From contig NZ_CP132957.1 of assembly GCF_030863805.1 (NCBI RefSeq), positions 2,108,001 through 2,172,000 on the forward strand: DNA of 64,000 nt, written 5' to 3'. The notes below the pieces were generated by a model. That model searched no databases, was not told the origin of the DNA, and saw nothing but the letters and a program-made list of their open reading frames with translations. Origin of the DNA: Kineothrix sp. MB12-C1 (GTDB lineage Bacteria; Bacillota; Clostridia; Lachnospirales; Lachnospiraceae). Below are positions 6,450 to 21,680 of the stretch, in pieces; the first letter of the stretch is position 1; every line of letters starts with the position of its first letter. A program made the position numbers and the translations under genes.

Positions 6450-7121
6450 TTACCAGATAAATGGAATAAGCCGATATCTGACCTTTTTCGTGTATTCTGT
6501 GTATCCGGTCAATCCTTCTTTTAATACAGTTTCTTCGTTTCTTATCCTTTTAGTCAGAAGAAATGGGTAAATGAAAAAGATAATGAAGGCATATGTAGAA
6601 CCTAAAATAAGGGGTATCGATAGGAAGAGAAATACGGTTGTAAAGTACATGGGATGCCTTACGATTCTGTATAGGCCGGTATCGATTACTTTTTGACCGT
6701 CTTGTACTTCGACTGTTCTGGATAAATAGACATTTTCTCTCATAACTTCTGCATATAGTCCATACGAAATTAAGAAGATAATCGCTGCTGCTATACTCAC
6801 CCAATCGGGGAGTTTGCTCCAATTATATCTGAAATCTAATGCGGAGATAATGAAACCGACTACAAATAGGATGAACGATAAGATGATGACTTGCTTTTGG
6901 GCGCGTTCATTTTCTCTCGTATTCAAACGCTTTGCGAGCAAATCGGGCGATTTTAATAAAAGAATGAGACCTGCCAGAAGCATAGGGATAAAGAGAACGC
7001 TAAGAAAGAGCCAGGCATTCCAATAATGTATTGAGCCTGCCGGTAAGAATAATAGCAGGCAAACTGTTATCAGACCCGTAAGAAGTTTAGTGGACGATTG
7101 AAATAATAATTTGATTGACAT
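6450..7121 (-). CDS. Isoprenylcysteine carboxyl methyltransferase-like membrane protein
   Basis: 223-aa integral membrane protein with about five hydrophobic segments. The second half carries the ICMT/PEMT-type block: LYRIVRHPMYFTTVFLFL, then FFIYPFLLTKRIRNEE and an EETVLKEGLTGYTEY segment, the SAM-binding region of the family. Bacterial members methylate unknown, probably lipid-like, substrates. The reading frame is open further upstream to 7187, but the ATG at 7121 has a purine-rich AAGGGGGAAC at the correct distance. The leader before it carries one copy of a 65-bp structured repeat. Confidence 0.85.
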   Translation of the reverse strand: MSIKLLFQSSTKLLTGLITVCLLLFLPAGSIHYWNAWLFLSVLFIPMLLAGLILLLKSPDLLAKRLNTRENERAQKQVIILSFILFVVGFIISALDFRYNWSKLPDWVSIAAAIIFLISYGLYAEVMRENVYLSRTVEVQDGQKVIDTGLYRIVRHPMYFTTVFLFLSIPLILGSTYAFIIFFIYPFLLTKRIRNEETVLKEGLTGYTEYTKKVRYRLIPFIW

Positions 7122-7148
7122 GATCTGTTCCCCCTTCATAAAAATATT

Positions 7149-7213
7149 ATACCTTAGCCGCAAGCGGCCACGGTATGTTTTTTGCACACTCGCTTTGCTC
7201 GGCGCAGTATAAT
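7149..7213 (-). repeat. 65-bp structured dispersed element, copy 1
   Basis: Read on the minus strand it starts ATTATACTGCGCCGAGCAAA and ends in a hairpin ATACC-(gtg)-GCCGC-tt-GCGGC-(taa)-GGTAT. The first 31 nt are identical to the copy at 18522-18586; overall 58 of 65 positions agree. Two pairs of differences in the hairpin are compensatory (C:G to T:A, and C:G to A:T), so base pairing is kept. It ends 27 bp before the start of the methyltransferase-like gene, in the same orientation. A TATAAT at about 7226-7231 (minus strand) could start a transcript that includes it. Confidence 0.8.
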
Positions 7214-7441
7214 ACTGTTTAAATATTATACCATATGACTTTTGTAATTGTTCAATATATTTTTTTGCAGGTTCGATTCTTCGGAGTATTCAGATGTAAC
7301 GGTGAAACATTGAACAGTTAAGAAAGAAAAAATCTTAGAATAGCATTTTAGTTGCAATTGAGGGCACTGTATTTGTAGGTCATGTTATCCTATCTTTAGT
7401 TTACTATGGTTTATGTTAAGATAGACATAAGGAGGCAGACG
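7214..7441. other. Divergent promoter region upstream of LytTR cassette
   Basis: 228 bp of AT-rich non-coding DNA between the dispersed element and the LytTR gene. It contains a minus-strand TATAAT-like box toward the methyltransferase gene, and a plus-strand TATGTTAAGAT box near 7410 close to the AGGAGG of the LytTR gene. No clear LytTR-type direct repeats were identified. Confidence 0.4.
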
Positions 7442-18475: not shown

Positions 18476-18521
18476 AAATAAATGTTCAGGAAGCTTCTGA
18501 CCATGCAATAGGATAGGTGGA

Positions 18522-18586
18522 ATTATACTGCGCCGAGCAAAGCGAGTGTGCATAAAATATACTTTGGACGCTTGCGTCTAAAGTAT
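18522..18586 (+). repeat. 65-bp structured dispersed element, copy 2
   Basis: Same 65-bp length as the copy at 7149-7213 and 89% identical; the first 31 nt are the same. The hairpin here is ATACT-(ttg)-GACGC-tt-GCGTC-(taa)-AGTAT, with two compensatory changes against copy 1. It lies 46 bp after the AI-2E gene and 60 bp before the O-antigen-ligase-like gene, in the direction of transcription. Confidence 0.8.
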
Positions 18587-18646
18587 GATAAACTATGATA
18601 ATAGGATAAAAGAAGTGAAAAACGAACTGAAAAGGGGAAAAGTAAG

Positions 18647-20290
18647 GTGCAGGTAGAAAAAGAAGAAAAGTTTAATATATTATCATTTTGTGAGGAGGCT
18701 GTTTCTTTATTGTTGATGGCCTATTTATTTATTATTTTCTTTTTCTATCCATTTTATATGCAGAATGGATATGTGGAAATAGGAAGCTCGAAGTTCTTCT
18801 TCTACCAGATGATTACAACAGGGGCCTTATTTGTTATAGTTCCTCTTGCAGCTCTTTGTATGTTGCTTCGGTTAAAGAACGTGGGAACTTTGTCTTATAT
18901 AAGGTTATCGTTTACCGATTGCTCATTTTTACTTTATGGAGTTGCTGTAATGCTTTCTTATTTCTGTTCACAGTTTAGAAGGGAAGCGCTCTGGGGTGAA
19001 AAGGGCTGGTATATGGGGCTTATTATTCAATTGTTTTTTATTGTCTTTTATTTTCTGATTTCTCGTTTTTGGGAATATGAAGAAAAGATATTGATAGCAT
19101 TTGCCGTCTCATCGGCGGGTGTCTTTTTACTCGGTTTATTGAATCGGTTTTCCATTTATCCGGTTATAATAGAAGGAGCAAACCGGGAGTTCTTATCAAC
19201 AATGGGAAATATCAACTGGTATTGCGGATATTTTTCCGTACTTTTTCCGGTGGGATTCGTATTATATTGGCTTACCGATAAGAGGTGGATAAAGATAGCT
19301 TCTGCTCTATATACTGCGATAGGGATTGCTACAGGTGTCACTCAAGGAAGTAATAGCGCTTTTATTGTTTTGGCAGGATTGTATGTAGTTCTCTTTTGCC
19401 TTTCTTTCCGCAGTTTAGGGAGAATGAAACGTTTCTTTGAACTGGCATTTATATTCTGTATTACTTGTCAGGGGCTGCGGCTTTGGCGTCTCACGTATCC
19501 GGAAAGTTTTGATTATTATGATGGGACGCTGGCTGATTGGATGAGCATGACGCGTATTACTCTCTATGCTATCGTTCCTCTGGCAATGGTTTATGTGCTT
19601 CTCCTTCTCGCAGGGAGGAAGAAAGATATGGACATGGGAAGGTATAAGATGCTCCGGCAGATAACGCTTCTCGTACTTACGATAATCATAGGAGTCTATG
19701 CTATGCTCTTAATCCTCAATACACGTGCGCAAGATGGCATTCGCTTTATGGGAGATCAGCGAATTCTTATCTTCAGTGAATATTGGGGAAGTTCCAGAGG
19801 CGGAACATGGACAGCAGGCGCAAATATATTCGGAGAAATGCCCCTTAGCAATAAGTTGATAGGGGTAGGACCGGACAGCTTTGCTTCTTACCTCTATATG
19901 CTGCCGGAAGTTACGGAGAAAGTGGTGGATCAATTCGGCACATCGAGATTAACCAATGCCCATAACGAATGGCTCACTGTGTTGGTGAATCATGGAATAA
20001 TAGGTCTTATAGGATATGCCGGGATATTTGTTAGCGTATGGATTAGATTTATATATCGGGCAGAAAGAATAACTGTCAGCCTAAAAGAAAAAAGAGAAGG
20101 GGATAAAAGACAGCTATATTTATACATATTTGCAATTAGTGCATTTTCCTATACCATACATAATATCGTGAGCTTCCAACAGATTCTGAGTACACCCTTC
20201 GTATTTCTTCTAATAGGAATGGGTGAGAGCCTGATGCGGGAAGGAAAGAAGGAGAAGAAGGGAGAATTTCAATCACTCGATCGACCTTAA
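18647..20290 (+). CDS. O-antigen ligase family (Wzy_C) membrane protein
   Basis: 547-aa polytopic membrane protein with about 12 TM helices. It shows the PF04932 arrangement: a large extracytoplasmic loop between residues about 350 and 420 carrying LIGVGPDSFASYLYMLPE and RLTNAHNEWLTVLVNHGIIG (the conserved H-N-x-W/L block). Gram-positive members ligate or polymerise surface polysaccharide repeats. The start is GTG preceded by an AAAAGGGGAAAAG tract. The leader contains the 65-bp dispersed element. Confidence 0.83.
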   Translation: MQVEKEEKFNILSFCEEAVSLLLMAYLFIIFFFYPFYMQNGYVEIGSSKFFFYQMITTGALFVIVPLAALCMLLRLKNVGTLSYIRLSFTDCSFLLYGVAVMLSYFCSQFRREALWGEKGWYMGLIIQLFFIVFYFLISRFWEYEEKILIAFAVSSAGVFLLGLLNRFSIYPVIIEGANREFLSTMGNINWYCGYFSVLFPVGFVLYWLTDKRWIKIASALYTAIGIATGVTQGSNSAFIVLAGLYVVLFCLSFRSLGRMKRFFELAFIFCITCQGLRLWRLTYPESFDYYDGTLADWMSMTRITLYAIVPLAMVYVLLLLAGRKKDMDMGRYKMLRQITLLVLTIIIGVYAMLLILNTRAQDGIRFMGDQRILIFSEYWGSSRGGTWTAGANIFGEMPLSNKLIGVGPDSFASYLYMLPEVTEKVVDQFGTSRLTNAHNEWLTVLVNHGIIGLIGYAGIFVSVWIRFIYRAERITVSLKEKREGDKRQLYLYIFAISAFSYTIHNIVSFQQILSTPFVFLLIGMGESLMREGKKEKKGEFQSLDRP

Positions 20291-21411: not shown

Positions 21412-21680
21412 CAAATAGGAAGCAGCGAAGAAGAGGAATAGTACGGATTAGCGAGCGTATCAGAGAGAGAGCCATTTGGTGTGAGGTTCTTACGAAAGTA
21501 TCCCGAACCGGCCTTGGAGCTCCGTATGAATAAAAAATACGGCGTAACACCGGCGTTAACGGTAGGATAAGAGGAATGCAATAAGATGCGGGCATAGATT
21601 ACTTGTGACGCATAGCATTAATAAGGGTGGTAACGCCGAGATTTCGGTCCCTATTGGGGACAGAAGGCTCGGCTTTTTTT
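21412..21680 (+). promoter_or_regulatory. T-box riboswitch, predicted proline-specific
   Basis: The stem I AGTA element (21440-21443), a GGTGTGAG distal segment (21479-21486), the T-box AAGGGTGGTAACGCC (21623-21637) and a terminator stem GCCGAG (21635-21640) / CTCGGC (21668-21673) with seven T residues are all visible. In the specifier loop, CGAA is followed by CCG (21508-21510), a proline codon, lining up with the GGC specifier of glyQS-type T-boxes. Uncharged tRNA-Pro would stabilise the antiterminator and allow proS expression. Confidence 0.9.

What the first reader, a model, noticed from the sequence alone, without database searches (positions are those of the whole stretch)
7149..7213. 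65-bp dispersed element whose two copies differ by compensatory base-pair changes
Seen directly: this element (minus strand) and 18522-18586 (plus strand) are both 65 bp and agree at 58 positions, with 31 identical bases at the 5' side. Of the seven differences, four form two compensatory pairs in the 3' hairpin: ATACC/GGTAT versus ATACT/AGTAT, and GCCGC/GCGGC versus GACGC/GCGTC. Conserved primary sequence on one side and conserved pairing with changing bases on the other is what a functional structured RNA or a protein-recognised hairpin looks like, not a decaying repeat. I know of no named family that it matches.
Basis: partly seen in the sequence, partly recalled or inferred. Interest (0 to 1): 0.72.

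Follow-up and report, generated by a model that had tools for sequence, protein, structure and literature searches.

The report
Dispersed hairpin repeat in Lachnospiraceae
The two look-alike 65-base stretches belong to a multi-hairpin DNA repeat that has spread, alone and in head-to-tail arrays, through this bacterium's chromosome and occurs in a number of relatives; its folded shape is kept while many of its letters change, and what moves it is unknown.

Summary
They are two of at least 81 copies in a single-contig genome, at 52 sites, 14 of them head-to-tail arrays of 2-7 units with a 77-80-bp period. The full unit has hairpins H1 and H4 around a near-frozen core; other species often add a small hairpin H3. 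Covariation in H1 and H4 exceeds shuffles and slid controls. A model of the unit matches 27 of 299 genomes of the family, the own genome included, several with an unrelated middle hairpin. At four of five sites tested, congeners lack the element (the fifth was not resolvable). No Rfam match, RAYT-type partner, target duplication or regulon was found in the searches made. Best reading: an undescribed family of small non-autonomous interspersed elements, working like REP/BOX repeats, whose conserved object is a folded single strand. Loop types in relatives lean to ssDNA; the window's own copies do not.

The parts
7149..7231 (-). complete unit A: H1 + core hairpin + A-rich linker + H4
   Evidence: CM R1 gives 74.5 bits for 7149-7233 (this unit is one of those the model was built from)
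7207..7231 (-). H1, AT-rich hairpin GTATAAT...ATTATAC
7184..7205 (-). core hairpin GCGCC-GA-GC-AAA-GC-GA-G-T-GTGC, near invariant in 81 copies
   Evidence: formed in the RNA fold, not in the DNA fold
7149..7176 (-). H4, 3' hairpin ATACC...GGTAT with compensatory changes; right end of the element
18522..18586 (+). unit B, lacks the 5' arm of H1 (starts ATTATAC)
   Evidence: CM R1 gives 52.1 bits for 18509-18586
18530..18551 (+). core hairpin of unit B
18559..18586 (+). H4 of unit B
18594..18599 (+). TATGAT, -10-like hexamer of the downstream gene; in three congeners without the element it lies 17 bp after TTGACG, so unit B appears to sit between -35 and -10 (hexamers read by eye)
6453..7139 (-). 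co-directional reading frame downstream of unit A (229 aa from the ATG at 7139)
18647..20290 (+). co-directional reading frame downstream of unit B (547 aa)

Best explanation
A family of small, non-coding, non-autonomous interspersed elements resident in Lachnospiraceae chromosomes. Each unit is a chain of hairpins (H1, a middle hairpin, often a small H3, then H4). SHOWN: many near-identical copies in one genome; head-to-tail arrays joined at GG|TAT; presence/absence at four orthologous sites; a right end (H4, ...GGTAT) that is almost always complete while the left end varies; base pairing kept in H1 and H4 while letters change. INFERRED: the copies were gained by insertion; a trans-acting activity recognises the folded single strand, uses GGTAT at the right end as a fixed joining point and the nearest upstream GGTAT (normally that of H1) as the left limit, which makes arrays and left-shortened copies; the strand is somewhat more likely ssDNA (for example the lagging-strand template) than RNA. 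The enzyme is not identified. Neighbouring promoters are affected only by the accident of insertion.
For: 81 copies within 3 mismatches of the 21-nt core, 70 exact, 0 for the reversed control pattern; one more copy with an inserted base. 52 clusters, 38 single, 14 arrays of 2-7. Sites without the element in congeners: 18522 (G007, G009, G014), 2305350 (G007, G009, G014, G010), 1267684 (G007, G014; G009 is rearranged there), 2917521 (G007, G009, G014). By a rule-based sorting H4 is complete in 51 of 52 clusters; H1 is full in 36, loopless in 4, 3' arm only in 7, absent in 5. Pairs changed on both sides: 10 of 22 in A1, 18 of 25 in A2, 25 of 31 in the cross-genus A4 (fitted to the model). In relatives loops follow the GNA/GNNA rule of very stable DNA mini-hairpins: of 48 H1 loops found, 41 are tetraloops, 34 of them GNNA, with a pyrimidine at the third place in 33 and a purine (RNA GNRA) in 1; of 63 H4 loops, 45 are triloops, 35 of them GNA; the rule is from passages of PMC4686876. 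Two arrays without H1 (L109, L126) start their unit at a GGTAT of what looks like host sequence. No regulon.
Against: No mobilising gene was found. The Y1 transposase family does not track the element: 13 of 16 genomes of the genus have it, 2 of these 16 carry the element, and 5 of 16 carrier genomes have it. The two IS200 types of this genome have different ends, though two of the four IS200 genes lie about 2.3 and 3.9 kb from a copy. The window's own copies fold better against shuffles as RNA (z -3.5, -3.0) than as DNA (z -1.7, -1.8); their core loop is AAA and their H4 loop CTTG, outside the GNA rule. In two relatives (L122, L104) the best fold, as DNA and as RNA, pairs the core with the H3 strand instead of making two hairpins, so the core and H3 helices are not secure there. 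G.T exceeds A.C only mildly (94 against 60 cells). Loop counts share ancestry. No transposition event was watched; the site comparison is between species, not strains.
Confidence: 0.55

Rival explanations
1. RNA-mediated spread: the unit is transcribed (H1 begins with an extended -10-like TATGGTATAAT), folded, and reverse-transcribed into the target in trans, leaving a fixed 3' end and variable 5' ends.
For: Fixed right end and variable left end; pairs covary and G.T is tolerated; about 13-15 nt of flank are repeated on both sides of the insert in L109 and L126 (read by eye); own copies fold well as RNA.
Against: H1 tetraloops in relatives are GNYA, not GNRA (33 against 1); left starts do not fall at one position; no repeated flank in the 18 of 52 own clusters that could be tested. 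No RT gene was looked for as a partner.
Confidence: 0.18
2. Cis-regulatory or structured RNA element kept upstream of genes for its effect on them.
For: Downstream gene co-directional at 36 of 52 sites (p 0.008) and at 22 of 30 where both neighbours point the same way (p 0.016) (simple gene calls); strong covariation; L142 and L149, records of two species, carry a copy in nearly the same flank.
Against: No Pfam family in more than 2 of 33 downstream proteins; 16 of 52 sites are not co-directional, and where the downstream gene is on the lagging strand the element follows it at only 6 of 11 sites; positions are not shared with congeners at four sites; arrays of up to 7. The bias is also a leading-sense bias (35 of 52) and the two are confounded.
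Confidence: 0.12
3. A MITE moved by an ordinary DDE transposase of the host.
For: Short, AT-rich ends, palindromic, non-coding; the empty sites are AT-rich by eye.
Against: The ends are direct, not inverted, copies of GGTAT; no target-site duplication stood out (best z 3.4 among 1560 offset and length combinations, 18 of 52 clusters); arrays; fixed right end with varied left end. Resident IS other than IS200 were not compared.
Confidence: 0.09
4. A chromosome-organising or protein-binding site multiplied by recombination and selected in place.
For: No exact match of core or H1 patterns in viral contigs and no blastn match of the 7149 copy in plasmid and phage records at E <= 1e-3; leading-sense bias 35 of 52.
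Against: Patchy: 2 of 16 genomes of the genus carry it; the middle hairpin is unrelated in several other genera, which a sequence-specific protein would hardly tolerate.
Confidence: 0.06

Closest known systems
REP / REPIN-BIME elements with TnpAREP (RAYT)
   Same: Short structured hairpins, intergenic, singles and clusters, many copies, mobilised in trans (features from passages of PMC6006769).
   Different: No GT[AG]G foot, no tnpAREP-type gene found beside copies, Y1 family does not track the element; arrays are head to tail, not inverted doublets; three or four hairpins per unit.
BOX elements of Streptococcus pneumoniae
   Same: Firmicute, modular, structured, proposed non-autonomous mobile repeat with tandem modules (passages of PMC3049150).
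   Different: Sequence kinship was not tested. Here the whole unit is tandem (not an inner boxB) and the middle hairpin differs between genera. BOX is over-represented between convergent genes; here 7 of 52 sites are convergent by the first gene calls (no expected number was computed).
IS200/IS605-group ends
   Same: Subterminal hairpins acting as ssDNA (passages of PMC6006769); no target-site duplication (recalled).
   Different: The two resident IS200 types have unrelated ends; no tnpA in cis.
MITEs
   Same: Small non-autonomous inserts with secondary structure.
   Different: No target-site duplication found in the clusters tested; ends are direct repeats.

Membership tests
REP/REPIN with RAYT | GT[AG]G tetranucleotide 5' to the hairpin foot | tested here: not met
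   Left of TATAAT in 88 left ends the commonest letters are A[AT]GG; before H4 lies an A-rich linker in own copies or H3 in others
REP/REPIN with RAYT | partner tnpAREP (Y1) gene with flanking copies | tested here: not met
   4 Y1 genes in the genome; no core-like sequence within about 1.5 kb of any, nearest copies about 2.3 and 3.9 kb away; two of the four read, both short IS200-type frames; no co-occurrence
REP/REPIN with RAYT | dispersed, structured, many copies, mostly between genes | tested here: met
   intergenic position judged from simple ORF calls
MITE (DDE type) | target-site duplication | tested here: inconclusive
   none seen, but only 18 of 52 clusters were usable; L109 and L126 show about 13-15 nt repeated flank by eye
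MITE (DDE type) | terminal inverted repeats shared with an IS of the host | not tested
   only the IS200 ends were compared; other IS of the genome were not listed
BOX element | boxA-boxB(n)-boxC modules | not tested
   no BOX models were run; architecture compared from passages of PMC3049150
Any Rfam family | match at the gathering score | tested here: not met
   (window, then 8, 15 and 20 loci)
Riboswitch / cis-regulatory RNA | association with a gene class and consistent sense orientation | tested here: not met
IS200/IS605 non-autonomous derivative | ends recognised by a resident TnpA | tested here: inconclusive
   end sequences of the two resident IS200 types differ from the element; recognition itself cannot be tested here

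The most novel reading that the evidence does not exclude
A natural mobile element selected as folded single-stranded DNA: it is built from DNA-type mini-hairpins (C-GNA-G triloops, C-GNYA-G tetraloops, tandem GA with GCGAAGC in the core), its middle hairpin is interchangeable between genera, and it is moved by an ssDNA-joining activity outside the Y1/RAYT family acting at GGTAT.
Probability: 0.25. Interest if true: 0.76.

Novelty: new variant of a known kind. Interest (0 to 1): 0.52.

Why it matters
Small interspersed repeats with a known mover are, as far as I recall, mostly REP/RAYT systems of proteobacteria; here is a covarying, multi-hairpin family in a number of Lachnospiraceae genera with no mover found. 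It gives a testable case of selection on nucleic-acid shape with sequence largely free, and a way to look for an unknown ssDNA- or RNA-processing activity. It also places promoter-like and hairpin sequence beside genes in these bacteria, and its presence/absence differences could serve for typing.

Tried and rejected
RAYT/IS200 partner: not supported. Shared neighbouring mobile gene: among reading frames of 90 aa or more in 104 loci (some of them overlapping or duplicate), none stood out in the 40 largest clusters printed; the largest looked by eye like ABC transporters, histidine kinases and response regulators. Strict insertion into -10 boxes: suggested by GTATAAT and by the 18522 and 2305350 sites, dropped as a rule because the 1267684 and 2917521 empty sites do not look like -10 boxes and the -35 signal is weak (at the 17-bp spacing 8 of 88 left ends match TTGACA at 4 or more places, mean 3.6 at the 28 other offsets, and one other offset also has 8). 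Independent spread of H4: 5 solo H4 all abut a full copy, so they look like array remnants; but only 455 kb chosen around copies were searched. Target duplication: none seen. Site of the 7149 copy: flanks too little conserved. Viruses, phages, plasmids: no match. Papers: ten searches (listings only, plus passages of three papers) showed no description of this family in the library held; most subscription papers are not in it. Order-wide search with R1: only the own genome among 295 (E <= 1e-4, 129 genera), which sits oddly with 27 of 299 in the family sample (E <= 1e-3, one genome per genus); the samples differ, so I treat the frequency as unsettled. Both searches used stricter filters and scored at most 15 candidates a genome.

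Limits of counts. The genome-contig scan used an exact core pattern, so core invariance in A2 is by construction. L145 (core beside a tRNA-like sequence, no hairpins seen) is probably chance. Picking units dropped L145, L157, rows with N and exact duplicates; own copies more than 95.5% alike were dropped and own copies capped at 45 of 81, which left out every copy in L057-L069. A1 has these 45 plus 7 of G014. A2 has 42 of 54 picked other-species units; I left out by hand both units of L109 and of L126, one further unit each of L115 and L134, and those of L110, L120, L129, L139, L147 and L153. Several of these lack H1 or H4, so A2's pairing percentage is favoured by the choice (L106, L116, L118 and L119, without H1, stayed in). 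A3 is 35 units picked by hand. The sorting of left ends is rule-based: 1643859, 3636423 and 3193708 were put in reduced classes though a 5' arm is visible, 3755991 looks loopless, and 2442329 and 3287046 were counted full though shortened by eye. Gene calls are simple ORF calls.

Full report
Observation. The two elements are as described: 65 bp, 58 identical, 31 leading identical, two compensatory pairs, and not chance. The 7149 copy is longer than reported: it carries an upstream hairpin H1 (GTATAATATTTAAACAGTATTATAC), whose 3' arm ATTATAC is the start of the reported 65 bp. The 18522 copy lacks the 5' arm of H1.

Copies in the genome. The window is 2108001-2172000 of a single 3,935,490-bp contig. 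The core 21-mer occurs 81 times within 3 mismatches, 40 forward and 41 reverse, 70 exact, and the reversed pattern 0 times. One further copy has an extra base in the core. The 81 copies lie at 52 sites: 38 single, 6 of two, 5 of three, and one each of four, five and seven, head to tail with a 77-80-bp period. Non-consensus letters are 12 of 1701 (0.7%) in the core and 9.2% in H4 (80 of 81 copies measured). The core was the search key, but only one copy has more than one mismatch, so the limit of three hardly shaped this.

Other genomes. Of 61 genomes (own, 15 of the genus, 21 of the family, 24 of the order) two have the core within 3 mismatches of 25 nt: the own genome and G014 with 8 copies. 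A scan of the 84,980-species collection with the exact pattern CCGAGCRRAGCGAGTGTGCA found 56 stretches, 50 of them titled Lachnospiraceae, Lachnoclostridium or Kineothrix. There the unit is typically H1 (GGTATAATRTCGNNAGAYATTATACC), core, a small H3 (CGC-GAA-GCG, with variants such as GCC-GAA-GGC and GGAAC-AAG-GTTCC) and H4 (TACCATGTC...GACATGGTA). A covariance model R1 then matched 27 of 299 genomes of the family at E <= 1e-3, the own genome included. I read one locus each of 26 genomes: several have a quite different middle hairpin between similar H1 and H4, for example GGCCGAATGGCC, or long branched ones, and the coordinates show arrays with other periods, about 69 to 112 bp. In a broader sample of 295 genomes of the order only the own genome matched at E <= 1e-4.

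Structure. With the structure stated by me from the sequences, 10 of 22 pairs in 52 own/Kineothrix units, 18 of 25 in 42 units of other species and 14 of 31 in a mixed set of 35 have changes on both sides. The covariation score is reached by 0 of 500 shuffles in each and is well above every slid control; in the mixed set one of the five measures, further pair types, is reached by 54 of 500. In A1 one inner pair of H4 is unpaired in 36 of 52 rows and another in 24. The cross-genus set A4 gives 25 of 31 pairs and 173 cells against 41.8 in shuffles, but it is fitted to the model and includes weak and opposite-strand hits. The core stem (GCGCC-GA-GC-RAA-GC-GA-G-T-GTGC) hardly varies, so covariation says nothing about it within this subfamily. 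RNAalifold predicts it in both A1 and A2 and the RNA folds of the two window units form it; but for L122 and L104 the best fold, as RNA and as DNA, pairs the core with the H3 strand instead, the DNA folds of the window units do not form it, and without the 5' arm of H1 the 7149 sequence folds as RNA into a long stem closed by the two ends. A similar tandem-GA, two-pair stem and triloop design recurs in some unrelated middle hairpins (L180, L185, L195; read).

DNA or RNA. Units of relatives (58 core-type and 26) gave 48 H1 loops, of which 41 are tetraloops, 34 of them GNNA, with a pyrimidine at the third place in 33 and a purine, as in RNA GNRA loops, in 1; and 63 H4 loops, of which 45 are triloops, 35 of them GNA. 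Passages of PMC4686876 state that GNA or GNNA loops with at least two G-C pairs make extraordinarily stable mini-hairpin DNA, name GCGAAGC (Tm 78 C) and use CGCGAAGCG, the H3 sequence of many relatives. This leans towards ssDNA. Against it: the window's own lineage has core loop AAA and H4 loop CTTG; its units fold better against shuffles as RNA (z -3.5 and -3.0) than as DNA (z -1.7 and -1.8); the excess of G.T over A.C is small (94 against 60 cells); and related sequences are not independent. Four relatives fold well both ways (z -5.1 to -7.0 as RNA, -6.2 to -6.8 as DNA). That CTTG closed by G-C is also a stable DNA loop is recalled and from no call.

Insertion. The gene pair around 18522 is matched in 16 of 16 genomes of the genus. 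In G007, G009 and G014 the site has no element and reads TTGACG-17 bp-TATGAT, so unit B appears to lie between the -35 and -10 of a promoter (hexamers read by eye). A reversed copy at 2305350 is missing in G007, G009, G014 and G010; G009 and G014 have an extended -10-like sequence there. The copy at 1267684 is missing in G007 and G014, whose site is AT-rich and does not look like a -10 box; G009 is rearranged there. The copy at 2917521 is missing in G007, G009 and G014, where the two genes are separated by a short spacer. The site at 7149 could not be judged. The four resolvable sites are gains here or losses elsewhere; gain is the simpler reading.

Ends. By a rule-based sorting H4 is complete in 51 of 52 clusters; H1 is full in 36, loopless in 4, reduced to its 3' arm in 7, and absent in 5 (misfits listed under Tried and rejected). 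No target-site duplication stands out in the 18 clusters that the rule could place. In two other species arrays lack H1, and the repeated unit starts instead at a GGTAT in what looks like host sequence: in L109 both units lie inside one open reading frame of 245 aa, in L126 just after the end of a 231-aa frame. No empty site was fetched for these two, so the host origin is inferred. Array joints are thus GG|TAT whether or not H1 is there. I infer a joining reaction at GGTAT with a fixed right end; slippage or template switching at this short homology is a weaker form of the same idea.

Partner. Y1 transposases exist in the genome as four genes; the two that were read are short IS200-type frames, and pairwise comparison gives two IS types with ends unlike the element. 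No core-like sequence lies within about 1.5 kb of them, though two lie about 2.3 and 3.9 kb from a copy. In the genus 13 of 16 genomes have Y1 while 2 of 16 carry the element; 5 of 16 carrier genomes have Y1, and most of these are MAGs whose completeness the call did not give. No neighbouring mobile gene recurs among the clusters printed. No exact match to core or H1 patterns was found in viral contigs and no blastn match in plasmid and phage records.

Gene context. The next gene is co-directional at 36 of 52 sites (p 0.008) and the element is leading-sense at 35 of 52 (p 0.018), taking the G-rich strand as leading with GC skew switching between 1.97 and 2.02 Mb. The two biases are confounded: the element follows the downstream gene at 30 of 41 sites where that gene is leading and at 6 of 11 where it is lagging. 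No Pfam family is hit by more than 2 of 33 downstream proteins (33 of the 35 candidates that a separate rule gave). A regulon is therefore not supported.

Verdict. A real, structured, dispersed element; by behaviour a REP/BOX-like non-autonomous repeat; not a member of the REP/RAYT class by the two features tested and not met; no described family found in Rfam or in the paper searches made. The folding of H1 and H4 is the conserved property; ssDNA is my guess over RNA, at somewhat better than even odds.

Noticed in passing
L037:2564-2719 (query 265-420): A second dispersed repeat of about 155 bp with several further copies in G000, G009 and G014 (about 71-82% identity in the rows listed), apparently unrelated to the hairpin element.
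   Followed up: no
own genome near 2574434 and 2917521 (L040, L045): Another short hairpin-like repeat, GTAACAGTGAGG...CTGTTAC, lies beside element copies; at 2917521 about 20 nt resembling it sit directly left of the element.
   Followed up: no
L142, L149, L158, L188, L190 downstream of the element: A further repeat beginning TATAATGTTC and containing CAATGAGCAG follows H4 in several species, as if different repeats were linked at the same TATAAT.
   Followed up: no
L109:1357-1530: A two-unit array without H1 lies inside an open reading frame of 245 aa (1015-1752).
   Followed up: partly
L118, L119, L139 (SUG999): Core plus H4 preceded by a longer conserved flank in place of H1, with another GAGCGAAGCGAGTT-like hairpin further upstream: a composite repeat.
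   Followed up: no
window 21419-21655 (+): T-box leader (97.4 bits, RF00230).
   Followed up: no
L070-L073 (G000 2971586, 3227971, 832266, 3729857): Two IS200-type insertion sequences, two near-identical copies each.
   Followed up: partly
L121 and L037: Five homologous genes are shared by the two loci (trmL-like and mutS2-like by eye), and each species has element copies in a different gap of that block.
   Followed up: partly
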